Below, in pieces: positions 1-58,230 of a DNA stretch of 64,000 bases (position 1 is its first letter; the number at the start of each line of letters is the position of its first letter). The position numbers and the translations under genes are program-made. The notes below the pieces were generated by a model. It was not told the DNA's origin. It saw only the letters and a program-made list of their open reading frames with translations, and did no database searches. The DNA comes from Aspidapion aeneum. Its lineage: Eukaryota > Arthropoda > Insecta > Coleoptera > Brentidae. Where the stretch lies: positions 8,146,372 through 8,210,371 of the forward strand of contig OY755042.1 of assembly GCA_963576565.1 (NCBI GenBank), given 5' to 3'.

Positions 1-389
1 TAGAGTTTATGTGAAAATATGGCGTGTGTGATATCAAACGAAAGGTAGTTGAGTCTGCTGTTGAACAAAATACATTTTAATTTAGTTAAAAAAAAGGGTG
101 GGGGTATATTTTAAAAATTAGAGTCTAAGTGAAAATATGGCGTGTGTGATATCAAACGAAAGGTAATTGAGTCCGGAGTTTAACAAAATACATTTTAGTT
201 TTTGTTTTTTTAAGGGTGGGGGTAGATTTCAAAAATTTGAGTTTAAGTCAAAACATGGCTTGTGTGGTATCAAACAAAAGGTAATTTAGTCCGGAGTTGA
301 ATAAAATATATTTCAGTTTTTAGTTATATTAGCTCACACGTACACTATAACTATATTACCTAGTGTGAGCTTAGGGGCCCATATATTTT
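1..389 (+). repeat. AGCTCACAC hairpin-ended element, copy 1 (cut by window start)
   Basis: This is the right part of a repeat seen seven times here. It has diverged tandem units of about 90-110 bp built around TATCAAACGAAAGGTAATTG, separated by A-rich tracts and GGGTGGGGG, and ends in a hairpin (AGCTCACAC ... GTGTGAGCT) at 330-372. No coding capacity is seen. Confidence 0.8.
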
Positions 390-3309: not shown

Positions 3310-4079
3310 TTTTTTTGTTCTCTTAATAAAATTGATCGTGTGAAATTGTTGGTAAAGCTTGAGAGTGTGGGTATTAAAGGGAGAGTTTTGAATTCGTTCA
3401 GAAGTTATTTGTATGATAGAAAACAGCAAGTTAGAATAAATGGAAGATTGACTAAAAGCTTGAGGAGTGAATGTGGTGTACCTCAAGAAAGTGTGTTGGG
3501 ACCTCTCTTATTTTTATTATACATCAATGATATTGTCAATATTACCAATGATAGTGATGATATTGAATTACATTTGCTTGCTGATGACACGTTGGCATAT
3601 GGTTCATCAGATAACATTGAAACACTTTTACAACATATGAATCGGACAATGCAAAAAATAGAAACATATTGTCGTAACAACATCCTATGTATCAATAAAG
3701 CTAAGACTAAATACATGATAATCGCAAAAGAGAATGTTAAGAAAAATGTAATTTCTTTAAATTATAGCCTTTATATGGGTACTGATATATTGGAATGTGT
3801 AACGAAGATGCGATACCTTGGTGTAATTATTGATGAAAAACTTACTTTTAAAGAGCACTGTAACTCAATAATGTCCAAAATAAGTTATAGTGTTAATCAT
3901 CTGGCTAGGTGTGCTGACGGATTGTCGATCTGGTCGAGGTTGGTGGTCTATAATACCATTGTTCTACCTCATTATAATTACTGTGCAACCATTTTGTACT
4001 TACTGCAGCAGAATGAAATTAACCGCCTTCAAAAAATGCAGAATAGGGCAATGAGAATTATTTTGCAGCGTAATAATCG
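3310..4079 (+). pseudogene. Non-LTR retrotransposon reverse transcriptase, interrupted (N-terminal piece)
   Basis: An open frame without its natural start. Visible RT blocks in order: KIDRVKLLVKLESVGIKG (motif A region), SECGVPQESVLGPLLF (usually GVPQGSVLGP), LLADDTLAY (catalytic xADD box, Leu instead of the usual Tyr/Phe), and GVIIDEKLTF (motif D/E region). The order and spacing fit Jockey/CR1-type elements. The 5' half of the element is missing. The frame breaks off at RNNRCTH, where a minisatellite is inserted, and resumes at 5226. Substitutions in two conserved boxes suggest it is dead. Confidence 0.85.
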
Positions 4080-5225
4080 GTGTACACATTTCTCACAATC
4101 TGTTCACAATCCTTCACAATCTTTACACAATCCCTCCCAATCACCCACAATCTGTTACAATCTCTCACAATCCTTCACAATCTCTCACAATCTTACCACA
4201 ATCCTTCACAATCTTACCACAATCCCTCACAATCTCTCACAATCTTTACACAATCCCTCACAATTTTAGCAAAAGATTGTGGAAAATATTGTGGATTTTC
4301 GCAATCGGCGTACACATTTTGGGGCTCCCTCACAATCTTAGCAGAAGATTGTGGATTTTCGCAATCGGCGCACACATTTTGGGGTCAGCTGGTCACCCCT
4401 CGGTTATTAAGCAGCAGGTCCGGGAACGGTAAATGAAGAGGGCGGCAAAGGAAACTATAGACATGATAGATGACCTTTTTTTTTTTTTTGGTCGCAAGAA
4501 TTTTAGATGGGACGGTGCCCACCCCGCCCCTTCAGGCGCGCTACGCCGCTGCACAGTCCTCCACCATCTGTCACATTCTCTCACAATCCTTCACAATCTT
4601 ACCACAATCCTTCACAATCTTACCACAATCCTTCACAATCCCTCACAATCTTTCACAATCCCTCACAATCTTTCACAATCTTGCCACAATCCCCCACAAT
4701 CTTTCACAATCCCTCACAATCTTGCCACAATCCCTCACAATCTTTCGCAATCCCTCACAATCTTAGCAAAAGATTGTGAGGGATTGTGAAAGATTAGCGT
4801 AATAATCGGTGTACACATTTCTCACAATCTGTTCACAATCCTTCACAATCTTTACACAATCCCTCCCAATCACCCACAATGTGTTACAATCTCTCACAAT
4901 CCTTCACAATCTCTCACAATCTCTCACAATCCGTCACAATCTTACCACAATCCTTCACAATCTTACCACAATCCCTCACAATCTCTCACAATCTTTACAC
5001 AATCCCTCACAATCTTAGCAAAAGATTGTGGAAAAGATTGTGGATTTTCAATCTTGCCACAATCCCTCACAATCTTTCACAATCCCTCACAATCTTGCCA
5101 CAATCCCTCACAATCTTTCACAATCCCTCACAATCTTGCCACAATCCCTCACAATCTTTCACAATCCCTCACAATCTTAGCAAAAGATTGTGGATTTTCA
5201 CAATCGGTGTACACATTTTGGGTTA
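4080..5225 (+). repeat. ACAATC minisatellite inserted in the retrotransposon
   Basis: Dense tandem array of 10-12 bp units (TCACAATCCC, TCACAATCTT and variants). A segment starting AATAATCGGTGTACACATTT at about 4072 recurs at about 4801, so roughly 730 bp is itself duplicated. RT sequence flanks both sides and GGTGTACACATTT occurs at both ends. Open frames here are repeat artefacts (runs of SQSFTI, HNLSQS). Confidence 0.9.
4393..4556. repeat. Fragment related to the poly-C hAT-type MITE at 21169-21587
   Basis: Breaks the minisatellite. Shares GGCAAAGGAAACTA, GACCTTTTTTTTTT, GTCGCAAGA and the terminal GCTACGCCGCTG with the element at 21 kb. Confidence 0.6.
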
Positions 5226-11029: not shown

Positions 11030-11570
11030 AATCAAAGAAGTTTTGTGGCTAATCGGGCAAAAAGGAGTTTTTTGTTTCCCTCATATTTTTCAGTGGGTAG
11101 CCTGAAAGCTTAACCTCACGGGGGTCCAAGATCTAATGGACACCTAATAAGTGTTTACAGTTAACTGTTTCGTCCTTATGGGACTCCTCAGAGCACTGCT
11201 GGTCAATGTGACAAATCTTGCGAAGTTAATTAGACGGTTTTGTCTGAAATCAAATGTAAATAGTGAGAAAACTATCGCAAGAAGCGCCATCTACCGAGAT
11301 ACGAGACAATTATAGTCCGTGACCTACGACAGCTCTGCATTGCATTTTTACCCGTCATCAAGACAGTGAGCGTCAATCAACGGAATTTTTAAGCCAAATA
11401 ATACTAACAAACGTGGAATTTCGTGAGGTTAAGCTTTCAGGCTACCCACGGAAAAATATGAGGGAAACAAAAAACTCCTTTTTGCCCGATTAGCCACGAA
11501 ACTTGTTTGATTTTTAAATTCACGGGTACGAAATTCCACGTTTGTTAAAAATATTTTTGTTTCAACCATT
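11030..11570. repeat. Hammerhead-bearing repeat inserted in the left arm of the 5.9 kb element
   Basis: Shares almost its whole length with 45672-46682, including AGTTTTTTGTTTCCC, GTAGCCTGAAAGCTTAACCT and AACGTGGAATTTCGT. The ends are inverted: GTGGCTAATCGGGC at the left is matched by GCCCGATTAGCCAC at the right. Confidence 0.8.
11150..11197 (-). ncRNA. Hammerhead ribozyme, minimal type I (copy H1)
   Basis: Minus strand, in order: stem I strand AGUGCU; core CUGAGGA; stem II GUCC-CAUAA-GGAC; GAAA; stem III ACAG-UUAA-CUGU (A15.1 is the last A of GAAA); cleavage base A (GUA); stem I return AACACU. All conserved core bases are present. Stem I has one C-A mismatch at its second pair. Stem III is better paired than in H2 and H4. 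Confidence 0.85.
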
Positions 11571-18790: not shown

Positions 18791-19490
18791 ATTTTAGCTC
18801 ACACATATACTATACTATAGTAGTGTGAGCTATGGTGATCCTAATTTTTTCGAGAAGAAAAAAATTGCTCCGATTTCAAAAATTTTTATATATCTTTGCG
18901 TTTCAGATGATTTTGAAACTTTTTTGTTGCGCCGTCTGTCTGTCTGTATGTCTGTCTATAACCACCAACGCGCATAACTCAAAAACCGCTTGCCCGATTT
19001 TAATGAAATTTGGTACCTAGGCTGGGTTTTGGGTCGAGATGGTCCCATTTAAAAATGAACAAAATCCACCGAACACAAGCCAAATAAAAGGGTGGGTATT
19101 TCAAAAATTAGAGTTTATGTAAAAATATGGCGTGTGTTTTATCAAACGAAAGGTAATTGAGTCTGGAGTTAAACAAAATATATTTTAGCTTATTAAAAAA
19201 AAGGGTGGGGGTAAATTTTAAAAATTAGAGTTTAAGTGGAAATATGCCGTGTGTGATATCAAATGAAAGGAAATTAAGTCTGGAGTGAAACAAAATACAT
19301 TTTACTTTAAAAAACGGGGGTAGATTTCAAAAATTAGAGTTTAAGTCAAAACAAGGCTTGTGGGGTATCAAACGAAAGGTAATTGAGTCTGGAATTGAAT
19401 AAAATATATTTCAGTTTTTAGTTATATTAACTCACACGTACGCTATAACTATAGTACCTAGTGTGAGCTTAAGTGCCCATAAATTAGCAG
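18791..19490 (+). repeat. AGCTCACAC hairpin-ended element, copy 4
   Basis: Hairpins at about 18796-18832 and 19432-19468, a (TCTG)n run at 18934-18954, then three tandem AAACGAAAGG units. The outer block is recognisable as GGGCACCTAA / CCATAAATTAGCAGAGTA. Confidence 0.85.
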
Positions 19491-20052: not shown

Positions 20053-20818
20053 AAAATACTGTGCCAATATATGGGCCCCTAAGCTCACACTAGGTACTAT
20101 AGTTATAGTATACGTGTGAGCTAATATAACTAAAAACTGAAATATATTATATTCAACTCCACACTAAATTACCTTTTGTTTGATACCACACAACCCATGT
20201 TTTGACTTAAACTCAAATTTTTGAAATCGACCCCCACCCTTAAAAAAAACAAAAAACTAAAATGTATTTTGTTAAACTCCGGACTCAGTTACCTTTCGTT
20301 TGATATCACACACGCCATATTTTCACTTAAACTCTAATTTTTAAAATAAACCCCCACCCTTTTTTTTAAATAAATTAAAATGTATTTTGTTTAACTGCAG
20401 ACTCAATTACCTTCCGTTTGATATCACACAAGCCATATTTTCACATAAACTCTAATTTTTGAAATCTATCCCCACCCTTTTATTTGGTTTGTGTTCGGTG
20501 GATTTTGCTCATTTTTAAATGGGACTATCTCGACCCAAGACCCAGCCTAGGTACTAAATTTCATTAAAATCGGCCAAGCGGTTTTTAAGTTATGCGCGTT
20601 GGTCGTTACAGACAGACATACAGACAGACAGACAGACAGACAGACATACATACATACAGACAGACAGACAGACAGACGGCGCAACAAAAAAGTTTCAAAA
20701 TCATCTGAAACGCAAAGATATATAGAAATTTTTGAAATCGGAGCAACTTTTTTTTTCTCGAAAAAATTAGGATCACCATAGCTCACACTACTATAGTATA
20801 GTATATGTGTGAGCTAAA
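20053..20818 (-). repeat. AGCTCACAC hairpin-ended element, copy 5
   Basis: Hairpins at 20082-20124 and about 20780-20815, CTTTCGTTTGATATCACAC units, and a long (GACA)n / CATA run at 20609-20675. Confidence 0.85.
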
Positions 20819-24907: not shown

Positions 24908-25622
24908 AAAATACTCTGCCAATCTATGGGCACCTAAGCTCACACTAGGTACTATAGTTATAGTGTACGTCTGAGCTAATATAACTAAAAACTGAAATAT
25001 ATTTTATTCAATTCCAGACTCAATTACCTTTCGTTTGATAGCACACAAGCCATGTTTTGACGTAAACTCTAATTTTTAAAATCTACCCCCACCCTTTTTT
25101 TAAAACTAAAATATATTTTGTTTAACTCCAGACTCAATTACCTTTCGTTTGATATCACACACGCCATATTTTCACTTAAACTCTAATTTTTGACATCTAC
25201 CCCCACCCTTCTTTTTTAAATAACTTGAAATTCATTTTGTTTAACTCCAGACTTAATTACCTTTCGTTTGATATCACACACGCCATATTTTCACATAAAC
25301 TCTCATTTTTGAAATCTACCCCCACCCTTTTATTTGGCTTGTGTTCAGTGGATTTTGTTCATTTTTAAATAGGACCATCTCGACCCAAGACCCAACCTAG
25401 ATACCAAATTTCATTTAAATCGGACAAGCGGTTTTTGAGTTATACGGGTTGGTCGTTACAGACAGACATACAGACAGACAGACGGCGAGACAAAAAAGTT
25501 TCAAAATCATCTGAAACGCAAAGATATATAAAAATTTTTGAAATTGCAACTTTTTTTTTCTCGAAAAAATTAGGATCACCATAGCTCACACTACTATAGT
25601 ATAGTAGTAGTGTGAGCTAAAA
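24908..25622 (-). repeat. AGCTCACAC hairpin-ended element, copy 6
   Basis: TACTCTGCCAATCTATGGGC at the left, hairpin at 24936-24977, CTTTCGTTTGAT units, a short (GACA)n run at 25460-25482, and the right hairpin at about 25583-25618. Confidence 0.85.
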
Positions 25623-45149: not shown

Positions 45150-45670
45150 TCCAGGCTTTAAAAAAATCTTCCAAGGAGTTTTTTTATTATTGTACTTCCC
45201 TGTTCTTATGGCTTAAGTTGAGGTGATGACCTAACCTAACCAAACTAAACCAAACCAAACATAACTTGTCAAAATAACTAAAGGGTTCAAAACAAAAATG
45301 GGGAAAATTACTCAAAAAAGCCAAATAAAAACTGTTTCAAAAATTTCAAAATAAAGTAATCTATAAACTCAAAAAAAAATTGTTTCCGACACCGAACTGT
45401 CCAGCGTCGAAATTTCCTGAGGATGAATTGTACTTATCCCCCACTTTACGGTTCTCCTCGATTTGCTTTAACTATAAATCACAATTTTGTTGTTGGTGAG
45501 TAAGTTTGTCTTTTAAGTTGACCAGTAAGAATTATGTTTTAATACAATCAGCTAATTTTTAAACACCAATAACATCTTTAATAAAAATTGGGGTTTAGAA
45601 TGGGATAGGAAGTGTTCAACTTTAATTTGGTAAGAACCATTCTGAGAGTATTTAAAAATTGGAATATCCA
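45150..45670. other. Intronic spacer with a short CTAAC/CAAAC-rich run
   Basis: CCTAACCTAACCAAACTAAA at about 45231 is degenerate low complexity. Nothing else recognised. Confidence 0.4.
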
Positions 45671-45785
45671 AACAAGTTTCGTGGCTAATCGGACAAAAAG
45701 GAGTTTTTTGTTTCCCTTATATTTTTCCGTGGGTAGCCTGAAAGCTTAACCTCACGGGGGTCCAAGATCTAATGGACACCTAATA

Positions 45786-45833
45786 AGTGTTGACAGTTAA
45801 CCGTTTCGTCCTTATGGGACTCCTCAGAACACT
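45786..45833 (-). ncRNA. Hammerhead ribozyme, minimal type I (copy H2)
   Basis: Minus strand: stem I AGUGUU pairs fully with AACACU (6 bp); core CUGAGGA; stem II GUCC-CAUAA-GGAC; GAAA; stem III ACGG-UUAA-CUGU with one G-U pair; cleavage after GUC. Every conserved catalytic base (C3, U4, G5, A6, G8, A9, G12, A13, A14) is present. The short stem III is characteristic of animal genomic hammerheads. Confidence 0.93.
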
Positions 45834-46298
45834 GCTGGTCAATGTGACAAATCTTGCGAAGTTAATCAGACGGTTTTGTCTCTAATTAAATGTAATTAGT
45901 GAGCGAACTATAGCAAGAGGCGCCATCTACCGAGATACGAGAGAAACAAAAAACTAAAAGCAGGCGAAAACACTGCTATACAATATCGATCAATGAAAAG
46001 ATCGAATGCAAATAAAAGGAAACAACTATAGTCCGTGACCTACGACAGCTCTTTGTCTTTCAGGCCGGATCAACACAGATTGTATTTTTACCCGTCTTTA
46101 AGACAGTGAGCGTCAATCAACGGAATTTTTAAGCCAAATAATACTAACAAACGTGGAATTTCGTACCCGTGAATTTAAAAATCAAACAAGTTTCGTGGTT
46201 AATTGGGCAAAGGAGTTTTTTTGTTTCCCTTATATTTTTCCGTGGGTAGCCTGAAAGCTTAACCTCACGGGGGTCCAAGATCTAATGGACACCTAATA

Positions 46299-46346
46299 AG
46301 TGTTGACAGTTAACCGTTTCGTCCTTATGGGACTCCCCAGAACACT
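46299..46346 (-). ncRNA. Hammerhead ribozyme, core-mutated (copy H3)
   Basis: Same as H2 except that the core reads CUGGGGA, so A6 has become G. This should weaken or abolish cleavage. It lies exactly 513 nt from H2 on the same strand. Confidence 0.88.
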
Positions 46347-46472
46347 GCTGGTCAATGTGGCAAATCTTGCGAAGTTAATCAGACGGTTTTGTCTCTAATC
46401 TTGGACCCCCGTGAGTGTAATTAGAGACAAAACCGTCTGATTAACTTCGCAAGATTTGTCACATTGACCAGC

Positions 46473-46520
46473 AGTGTTCTGAGGAGTCCCATAAGGACGA
46501 AACGGTTAACTGTCAACACT
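46473..46520 (+). ncRNA. Hammerhead ribozyme, minimal type I (copy H4)
   Basis: Plus strand and sequence-identical to H2 in all 48 positions: stem I AGUGUU/AACACU, core CUGAGGA, stem II GUCC/GGAC, GAAA, stem III ACGG/CUGU, cleavage after C46514. It is the inverted partner of H3 in the palindromic end of the repeat. Confidence 0.93.
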
Positions 46521-46885
46521 TATTAGGTGTCCATTAGATCTTGGGGAGGTTAAGCTTTCAGGCTACCCACGGAAAAATATAAGGGAAACAAAAAAACTCC
46601 TTTTTGCCCGATTAGCCACGAAACTTGTTTGATTTTTAAATTCACGGGTACGAAATTCCACGTTTGTTAGTATTATTTTTGACTTTATAAAAAAAAATTA
46701 ATAGGACCTTTTCCGATTGGAACTTAAATACTTTTTAAAACTCGAAAAAGCGATGCTTGATTGTTTTTTATGCTACCGTATACCTATTCTGTATTTATTG
46801 TATTATTAACAAAGTTAGCAATAAGCAATTGACACTTAATTCGGAACCGCCTGTATAATTTTTTTTAAGGACAGGAATTGCCTAC

Positions 46886-56325: not shown

Positions 56326-57786
56326 TACAGGGTGTTTCCTAATTGAATGTCAATATTTATGGGGGTGATTTTTAGGCCCATTTTAAGAAAAAAACGTCAT
56401 ATGAACATATGTCCTAAACGTCTTACCTTTTGAGATACAGGGTGGTAAAGTTTTCAAAAATAAATCATTTATTATTAATATCTACAATACCACTTCAGAT
56501 ATTTTAATGAAATATGTCATAAATGTACTATGAATCAAGAGGCATTTTTTAATGTATCACTTTGTTTTTAATTTCCATCGGTGGCGTTCGTACGTAATTT
56601 GACCTGCCTATTTTGGCAGACATTGATGGTACGCCACTGATTTTTTCTGAAATAAAAATTATTTTTGAAATCCCCAATCATTTCTAACCAAAGTTGATTA
56701 CTTGATTTTTTTTCAATCCGATGCACGGTTTTCGCTTAAAAAAATAAAAACCGTTTCTCTGCATGATCATAACAATATCGTTAATATAACAATATCATCA
56801 TGCAGAGACACGTAGATTTTATTTTTTTAGTAGAAACCCGTGCGTCGGACTAAAAAATACTCTGCCAATTTATGGGCACTTAAGCTCACACTAGGTACTA
56901 TAGTTATAGTGTACGTGTGAGCTAATATTACTAAAAACTGAAATATATTTTATTCAATTCCAGACTCAATTACCTTTCGTTTGATACCACACAAGCCATA
57001 TTTTGACTTAAACTCTAATTTTTGAAATTTACCCCCACCCTTTTTTTTAAACTAAAATGTATTTTGTTTAACTCCAGACTCAATTACCTTTCGTTGGATA
57101 TCACAAACGCCATATTTCCACATTAACTCTAATTTTTGAAATTTACCCCCACTCTTTTTTTAAAATAAACTAAAATGTATATTGTTTAACTCTAGACTCA
57201 ATTACCTTTCGTTTGATATCACACACGCCATATTTTTACATAAACTCTAATTTTTGAAATCTTCCCCCACCCTTTTATTTGGCTTGTGTTCAATGGATTT
57301 TGTTAATTTTTAAATGGGACCATCTCGACCCACAACCCAGCCTAGGTACCAAATTTCATTAAAATCGGGAAAATCCGTTTTTGAGTTATGCGCGCTGGTC
57401 GTTACAGACAGATATACAGACAGACAGACAGAGCAACAAAAAAGTTTCAAAATCATCTAAATCGCAAAGATATATAAAAATTTTTAAAATCGGAGCAACT
57501 TTTTTTTTCTCGAAAAAATTAGGATCACCATGGCTCACACTACTATAGTATAGTAGTAGTGCGAGGTAATTCAAGAGATCAAATTTGCTCATAATTGAAT
57601 ACAGATTTAAAAAGTACACTTCACTTGGTATTGTAGCTAATAAAGATTTATTTTTAAAAACTTTACCACCCTGTATCTCAAAGGGTAAGACGTTTAGGAC
57701 GTATGTTCATATGGAGTTTTTTTCTTAAAATGAGCCCAAAAATCACCCCATATAAATATTGACATTCAATTAGGAAACACCCTGTA
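56326..57786. mobile_element. Fold-back element with ACAGGGTGTTTCC ends (1.46 kb)
   Basis: Arms of about 140 bp: TACAGGGTGTTTCCTAATTG, GTCAATATTTATGGGGGTGA, TTTGAGATACAGGGTGGTAA. The right arm is inverted, ending AGGAAACACCCTGTA. A second inner hairpin is at about 56720-56850, and AGCTCACAC copy 7 is nested inside. Confidence 0.9.
56855..57570 (-). repeat. AGCTCACAC hairpin-ended element, copy 7 (nested)
   Basis: TACTCTGCCAATTTATGGGC at the left, hairpin at 56883-56924, three CTTTCGTTTGAT units, a short (GACA)n run at 57405-57430, and a right hairpin whose last arm is decayed (GTGCGAGGT). Confidence 0.85.
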
Positions 57787-58182: not shown

Positions 58183-58230
58183 ATCCACGACCGGACCGGT
58201 TTCGACCTTTTGGGCCATCCTCAGGTGAAT
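58183..58230 (-). ncRNA. Hammerhead-like ribozyme, second family (one extra U)
   Basis: Minus strand: stem I AUUCAC pairs with GUGGAU (6 bp, one G-U); core CUGAGGA; one extra U; stem II GGCC-CAAAA-GGUC (one G-U); GAAA; stem III ACCG-GUC-CGGU; cleavage base C after GU. All catalytic core bases are present. The U between A9 and stem II is not in the usual consensus, so activity is uncertain. Confidence 0.68.

What the first reader, a model, noticed from the sequence alone, without database searches (positions are those of the whole stretch)
45786..46346. Tandem hammerhead ribozymes 513 nt apart: a candidate self-processing, retrozyme-like repeat
H2 and H3 lie on the same strand exactly 513 nt apart in a direct repeat without coding capacity. 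A transcript cut at both would release a 513-nt monomer, the design known from retrozymes and ribozyme-bearing satellite RNAs. The 48-nt fold is seen base by base: stem I 6 bp, CUGAGGA, stem II 4 bp, GAAA, 4-bp stem III, GUC. Minimal type I hammerheads are known from animal satellites (schistosomes, cave crickets, salamanders) and Penelope-like elements. I do not recognise this repeat.
Basis: partly seen in the sequence, partly recalled or inferred. Interest (0 to 1): 0.92.

Follow-up and report, generated by a model that had tools for sequence, protein, structure and literature searches.

The report
Hammerhead-ribozyme retroelement with Penelope-type ends
This is one insertion of a very abundant, gene-less mobile element that carries a self-cutting RNA motif, and the ends of its copies suggest that a Penelope-type reverse transcriptase moves it, which bears on an open question about such elements in animals.

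Summary
The hammerhead at 45786-45833(-) is real: intact core, three stems, 0 descriptor hits in 150 shuffled windows, although its Rfam score is below threshold. The copy 513 nt away, 46299-46346(-), has a broken core (CUGGGGA), so this locus should not release a 513-nt monomer. An intact copy (46473-46520,+) lies in an inverted arm. The whole insertion is 45669-46678; another lies at 11033-11556. The host genome (1.29 Gb, unnamed) holds 5,354 exact copies of the 36-nt ribozyme core. The element is a noncoding 514-nt unit, single or tandem.

Insertion ends suggest the mechanism. In 41 scored insertions 5' ends vary, while 3' ends fall at A (u511-514) or B (u34-54), one unclear. All 20 two-ended head-to-head insertions with both ends called have one A and one B; 16 of 20 share 8-13-bp flanking repeats, against 0 of 20 single-ended ones. 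Variants were fixed in both arms in 10 cases and in one arm only in 0. This matches the published Penelope-like (PLE) signature, on an element with no gene. Reading: an animal non-LTR retrozyme moved in trans by a PLE, probably from a circular template. The PLE partner was not found; cleavage and circles are untested.

The parts
45669..46678 (-). Whole insertion: one full unit, one 5'-truncated unit, 18-nt junction, inverted arm. 3' end A at 45669, 3' end B at 46678. No flanking repeat above 3 bp found.
45669..46182 (-). Full 514-nt unit (u1 at 46182, u514 at 45669)
   Evidence: differs from the family consensus at 4 sites
46183..46399 (-). 5'-truncated unit, u297-514
46418..46678 (+). Inverted arm: u295-514 followed by tail u1-47 (end B)
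45786..45833 (-). Intact type I hammerhead (H2), u350-397; predicted cut between 45792 and 45791
46299..46346 (-). Hammerhead copy (H3) with broken core CUGGGGA
   Evidence: absent from the descriptor hits
46473..46520 (+). Intact hammerhead in the inverted arm
11033..11556 (-). Second, more diverged head-to-head insertion (A and B ends), flanked by a 13-bp exact repeat
11150..11197 (-). Its hammerhead: core intact, GUA before the cut, one C/A mismatch in stem I; not found by the descriptor

Best explanation
A noncoding animal retrozyme moved in trans by Penelope-like (PLE) machinery. Inferred: the 514-nt unit is transcribed, cut once per unit by its hammerhead and closed into circles; a PLE protein made elsewhere cuts both target strands about 12-13 bp apart and starts cDNA inside the RNA, at site A on one strand and at site B, some 34-54 nt away, on the other; both cDNAs run round the template, stop at no fixed place and are joined head to head. 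Shown: the two 3' end positions, their one-A-one-B pairing, the flanking repeats, variable 5' ends, tandem units, head-to-head orientation and shared founder variants. Not shown: transcription, cleavage, circles and the identity of the PLE. The window locus is one such insertion, with one same-strand ribozyme decayed.
For: Two 3' end positions and 20 of 20 A/B pairs among two-ended insertions with both ends called. Exact flanking repeats of 8-13 bp in 16 of 20 A/B insertions against 0 of 20 single-ended ones; 1.1% of 467 mismatched flank pairs reach 8. In the first 100 listed core copies, 12 of 12 close opposite-strand neighbours are head-to-head. 64 scored 5' ends spread round the unit, no pile-up at the hammerhead cut u391; 55 of 64 same-strand runs are longer than 177 nt, the most that a cut linear monomer could give from A or B. 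Variants fixed in both arms 10 times, in one arm only 0 times. Published PLE features match: two adjacent internal start sites explaining a 30-40-bp tail, cutting and extension of both strands (PMC11167929); 31-bp tail at one of two inverted pLTRs and 8-10-bp duplications (PMC3846280, passages). GIY-YIG PLE-type genes are in the genome: 91 matches, with RT frames.
Against: No PLE sharing the unit's 3' end was found in 30 GIY-YIG loci or L073. No RNA data. Rfam score below gathering. The hammerhead is not the MFE fold of its own 48 nt (-8.5 against -9.1), and by eye the MFE of the 514-nt circle pairs its bases otherwise. Variants: 9 mixed cases between arms; in arrays with 3 or more covering units (L028 left out) 14 variants are in all units, 36 in some, 235 in one. 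The arm test has little power where an arm has one unit; the 10 cases come from 5 insertions and only 4 of them are private to one insertion. Later conversion could also make arms alike. 4 of 20 A/B insertions, the window's among them, have no flanking repeat of 8 bp.
Confidence: 0.75

Rival explanations
1. PLE-mobilised, but the template is an uncut multimeric transcript of a genomic array, not a circle; the hammerhead is incidental to insertion.
For: For the anole PLE, hammerhead mutants did not affect insertion in vitro and unprocessed RNA was taken to be the main substrate (PMC11167929). 36 partly shared variants in arrays outside L028 could come from mixed multimers.
Against: Variants private to one insertion are in all covering units of both arms of L020 (u4, u27) and of L012's second insertion (u342, u436); single-unit variants recur elsewhere about as often as chance (127 of 360 against 113.9, sd 9.1). 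A homogeneous source array would weaken this argument.
Confidence: 0.2
2. The unit is a solo terminal repeat or deletion derivative of an autonomous PLE family with the same repeat, not an independent retrozyme.
For: PLEs form partial tandems and inverted pLTRs (PMC3846280); a 21-row PLE family here has a hammerhead-like motif near its 3' end.
Against: All 37 fetched loci show 514-nt tandem or truncated units and no coding insert between units; the unit does not match 29 of 30 GIY-YIG loci beyond weak alignments, and the one that does, L049, is an array lying in a PLE frame. The fetched loci are the best-scoring ones, so rare coding copies could be missed.
Confidence: 0.15
3. A LINE moves it, with twin priming making the inverted arms.
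For: LINE-type reverse transcriptase sequence is present in the window (PF00078 at 3310-4266; LINE label recalled).
Against: Inverted arms end at a fixed 3' position (A or B) just as the direct arms do, 20 of 20 as an A/B pair; twin priming (recalled mechanism) would give variable outer ends on the inverted part and one fixed tail.
Confidence: 0.05
4. Ordinary satellite DNA with a hammerhead relic, spread by unequal exchange.
For: Tandem arrays exist; L031 variants at u163/325/483, 320/456 and 327/502 suggest later block duplication.
Against: Dispersed: 62 clusters in the first 100 listed core copies, 40 of them single; fixed 3' ends and flanking repeats show insertion.
Confidence: 0.03

Closest known systems
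Animal non-LTR retrozymes (Cervera and de la Pena 2020, PMC7229834, parts 1-4 of 6 read)
   Same: Noncoding tandem repeats with type I hammerheads, low GC (39.9% here), no LTR-retrotransposon organisation seen, duplications longer than 4 bp, coexistence with PLEs
   Different: Unit 514 nt against published 150-450 bp repeats and 170-400-nt RNAs; two defined 3' ends and paired head-to-head arms, which I did not see described for them in what I read; RNA circles shown there, untested here
Penelope-like elements (PMC11167929, parts 1-2 of 4 read; PMC3846280, passages)
   Same: 5' truncation, partial tandems, inverted head-to-head arms, optional tail of tens of nt, short target duplications, hammerhead near the RT start region
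   Different: No RT or GIY-YIG gene in the unit; end usage here was counted over 20 insertions and is strictly one A and one B, while the in vitro study saw no difference in start site between strands
pDo500 satellite of Dolichopoda cave crickets (PMC2837043, passages)
   Same: About 500-bp repeats with a 49-nt hammerhead whose stem III holds a G-U pair
   Different: Described as satellite DNA; sequences not compared here, none was at hand
Plant LTR retrozymes (PMC4918200 seen in listings only; features from PMC7229834 and PMC7761336)
   Same: Noncoding element with tandem hammerheads and a circular-RNA model
   Different: Type III hammerheads, LTRs, primer site and polypurine tract, 4-bp duplications, 600-800-nt circles

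Membership tests
Type I hammerhead ribozyme | Conserved core CUGANGA...GAAA...NUH enclosed by three stems, stem I open | tested here: met
   H2 and the + strand copy; H3 fails
Type I hammerhead ribozyme | Rfam RF00163 gathering score (a search threshold, not a structural definition) | tested here: not met
   24.7 bits against 34
Type I hammerhead ribozyme | Self-cleavage | not testable with these tools
   needs in vitro transcription
Animal non-LTR retrozyme | Noncoding repeats with type I hammerheads, from dimers to multimers | tested here: met
   many copies are single units
Animal non-LTR retrozyme | GC below 45-50% and target duplications longer than 4 bp when present | tested here: met
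   39.9%; 8-13 bp in 16 of 20 A/B insertions
Animal non-LTR retrozyme | Unit of a few hundred bp (published 150-450 bp) | tested here: inconclusive
   514 nt, just outside the published range
Animal non-LTR retrozyme | Expression as self-cleaved linear and circular RNA | not testable with these tools
   no RNA data
Animal non-LTR retrozyme | Loop 1 to loop 2 tertiary contacts of the canonical (not minimal) hammerhead | not tested
   only secondary structure was examined
Autonomous Penelope-like element | Frame with reverse transcriptase and GIY-YIG endonuclease | tested here: not met
   unit has no frame above 74 aa; so it is not filed as a PLE
Insertion by PLE machinery (works like) | Variable 5' ends, fixed 3' end with optional tail at one of two inverted arms, short duplications | tested here: met
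Insertion by PLE machinery (works like) | A PLE in the genome sharing the RNA start region | tested here: inconclusive
   not found in 30 of 91 GIY-YIG matches plus L073
Plant LTR retrozyme | Type III hammerhead and 4-bp duplications | tested here: not met
   type I fold; 8-13-bp repeats
Classical satellite DNA | Tandem arrays without insertion ends | tested here: not met
   40 of 62 clusters single among the first 100 listed cores; insertion ends

The most novel reading that the evidence does not exclude
Animal retrozymes are moved by Penelope machinery in a paired reaction: two protomers load one circular RNA, one starting cDNA at site A on one target strand and the other at site B on the opposite strand, so each complete insertion carries exactly one A and one B end, joined head to head after any number of turns round the circle.
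Probability: 0.5. Interest if true: 0.75.

Novelty: new member of a known kind. Interest (0 to 1): 0.62.

Why it matters
A 2020 review says that metazoan retrozyme repeats show no conserved motif that would help deduce whose transposition machinery they use (PMC7761336, passage); PLEs were proposed mainly because they co-occur and also carry type I hammerheads. Here the insertion ends themselves carry the PLE signature, and variants shared across units and arms favour one RNA template per insertion. With thousands of copies about 1% diverged from consensus in the fetched sample, this genome makes the question directly testable and offers in vivo statistics for the poorly known PLE reaction.

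Tried and rejected
Rfam microRNA-type matches around 46358-46462 (all below gathering) are the inverted arms pairing with each other; rejected. The hammerhead-like string at 58200-58224(-) lies within an 85-aa open frame and has an extra base before stem II; the descriptor does not accept it; treated as chance. The core pattern has 0 exact matches in viral contigs. Search for the helper: GIY-YIG scan; unit against 30 loci and L073; Rfam with E up to 5 on 30 of these 31 loci, L049 left out, gave no hammerhead, not even the L068 motif that my descriptor accepts. PLE pieces do not match the window at E 1e-4. The protein search with the window's RT did not name the host. A cut linear monomer as main template was rejected: 5' ends do not pile up at u391 and 55 of 64 runs are too long.

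Limits: the 37 fetched loci are the best-scoring copies (39 of 1806 candidates scored), so they are young and close to the window copy. Ends were classed by position (A: u505-514 or u1-8; B: u30-56). Of 43 chains of 150 nt or more, 2 ran off their locus (L028, first chain of L030) and were dropped; L008 (A/unclear) is outside the 20. L013's two single-ended chains, head to head 620 nt apart with one B and one A end, may be one insertion; they were counted as single-ended. Flanking repeats are longest exact matches and may be a base or two too long by chance.

Full report
What is there. The minus strand of 45786-45833 can fold as a type I hammerhead: 6-bp stem I, CUGAGGA, 4-bp stem II with loop CAUAA, GAAA, 4-bp stem III (A-U, C-G, G.U, G-C) with loop UUAA, and GUC. 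A descriptor of core and stems hits two places in the window and none in 150 shuffles. Rfam RF00163 gives 24.7 bits for both, below its gathering score of 34. The hammerhead fold has -8.5 kcal/mol against an MFE of -9.1 for another fold of the same 48 nt. The copy 513 nt away reads CUGGGGA; that a change of this A abolishes cleavage is recalled, not tested.

Extent. The insertion runs from 45669 to 46678: one full unit, one truncated unit, an 18-nt junction and an inverted arm. A second, more diverged insertion lies at 11033-11556.

The family. The window lies in a 1.286-Gb genome of 149 contigs, without names; that the host is an insect is only my guess from its repeats. A 747-nt query gave 115 scored matches, 39 of 1806 candidates having been scored. 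The exact 36-nt core occurs 5,354 times (2605 + 2749), against 0 for the reversed pattern. I fetched 37 loci with flanks and added the two window loci. Among 149 hammerhead copies in these, 40 are distinct, 101 are identical over 66 nt to the window's and 141 keep CTGA.GA...GAAA. Divergence from consensus is 0.56% in the hammerhead (41 of 7302) and 1.09% outside (697 of 63896). Inside it, core and stems are alike (0.61% each) and loops lower (0.36%), so constraint is suggested but not proved.

Insertion anatomy. I number the unit u1-514 in ribozyme sense. Of 41 scored insertions (43 chains, 2 dropped for running off), 20 are two-ended with one A end (u511-514) and one B end (u34-54), 11 are single-ended A, 9 single-ended B, and 1 (L008) is unclear. 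No A/A or B/B pair was seen. With equal and independent use of A and B, 20 of 20 has a chance of about one in a million (my arithmetic). Exact repeats of 8 bp or more flank 16 of 20 A/B insertions, 13 of them 12-13 bp, and 0 of 20 single-ended ones; 1.1% of 467 mismatched flank pairs reach 8 bp. The window insertion is one of the 4 A/B cases without.

Orientation in a sample not chosen by score: in the first 100 core places listed, all on contig C1, 38 neighbouring pairs lie under 2 kb apart: 26 same-strand (22 at 513-519 nt), 12 head-to-head, 0 tail-to-tail. These places form 62 clusters, 40 of them single. Only exact cores count, so clusters are understated.

Template. The 64 scored 5' ends are spread over the unit, without a pile-up at the cut u391. 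L031 holds 16 consecutive units, the last two bases short. If a linear monomer cut at u391 were copied from A or B it could give at most about 123 or 177 nt; 55 of 64 runs are longer. For variants seen at least twice and covered in both arms, 10 are in all units of both arms, 0 are fixed in one arm (two or more units) and absent from the other, and 9 are mixed; the 10 come from 5 insertions and 4 of them are private to one insertion. In arrays with at least 3 covering units, L028 left out, 14 variants are in all units, 36 in some and 235 in one. Single-unit variants recur in other insertions about as often as chance placement gives: 127 of 360 against 113.9, sd 9.1, 300 rounds. One template sequence per insertion, most simply a circle, fits best; a homogeneous multimer or later conversion stays possible. 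The 514-nt circle folds better than 60 shuffles (-134.9 against -113.3, sd 6.0), but by eye its MFE keeps stem II and pairs the rest of the ribozyme otherwise.

Machinery. Frangieh et al. 2024 (PMC11167929, parts 1-2 of 4 read) show that an anole PLE protein cuts and extends both strands and starts reverse transcription at two adjacent internal sites, which explains the optional 30-40-bp tail of PLE copies; they saw no difference in start site between strands, and hammerhead mutants still inserted in vitro. Arkhipova et al. 2013 (PMC3846280, passages) report a 31-bp tail optionally at one of the inverted pLTRs, 8-10-bp duplications and a host gene inserted in trans. The present element shows this set of end features without a gene. 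PLE-type genes exist in the genome: 91 GIY-YIG matches (150 of 633 candidates scored), with reverse-transcriptase frames in the same loci (the Penelope label rests on recalled motifs). One PLE family has a hammerhead-like motif near its 3' end in 21 aligned rows. Only L068 passes the descriptor, the other rows showing an extra base or changes there by eye, and Rfam lists none of them at E up to 5. No PLE sharing the unit's end was found; that link is missing.

Literature. Animal retrozymes: PMC7229834 (parts 1-4 of 6) and PMC7761336 (passages), where PLEs are named as likely helpers; PMC8969392 (passage) says they may rely on PLEs. My searches listed no title or abstract start reporting a retrozyme with PLE-type ends; I opened only some of the papers and the library lacks several key ones.

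Verdict. A new family of a known kind, the animal non-LTR retrozyme, with unusually clear evidence on how it inserts. The likely helper class is named by the ends, not yet by a partner gene.

Noticed in passing
L074 (G000:C9:59493350-59494350), hammerhead at C9:59493794-59493840(-): The one RF00163 match over the gathering score in the genome scan (40.6 bits; 74 of 155298 candidates scored). Its core reads CUGAUGU; it lies about 130 nt from an antisense copy of the 514-nt unit and after a repeat shared with L039 and L052.
   Followed up: partly
L049 1-1460 (G000:C10, beside the GIY-YIG match 59520995-59521222): An array of at least 2.7 units whose B tail abuts a degraded PLE GIY-YIG frame: apparently a nested insertion into a PLE.
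   Followed up: partly
L068, L044, L057 and other rows: A PLE family with a hammerhead-like motif about 440-460 nt after its frame in many members; its 3' ends often run into (TA)n.
   Followed up: partly
L031: Multi-unit variants sit in units 1/4, 2/5 and 3/6/7, suggesting duplication of a three-unit block after insertion.
   Followed up: no
window 1-326, 848-1068, 2540-2877, 19207-19411, 20132-20485, 24986-25335, 56935-57280: Short arrays (2-3 copies) of what looks by eye like one 109-119-bp repeat at seven places and in both orientations.
   Followed up: no
window 3310-4266(+): Reverse transcriptase frame, PF00078, 53.4 bits; LINE type by recall.
   Followed up: no
L016 375-881 and L035 29-316: PLE-like protein fragments in the flanks of two unit arrays.
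   Followed up: no
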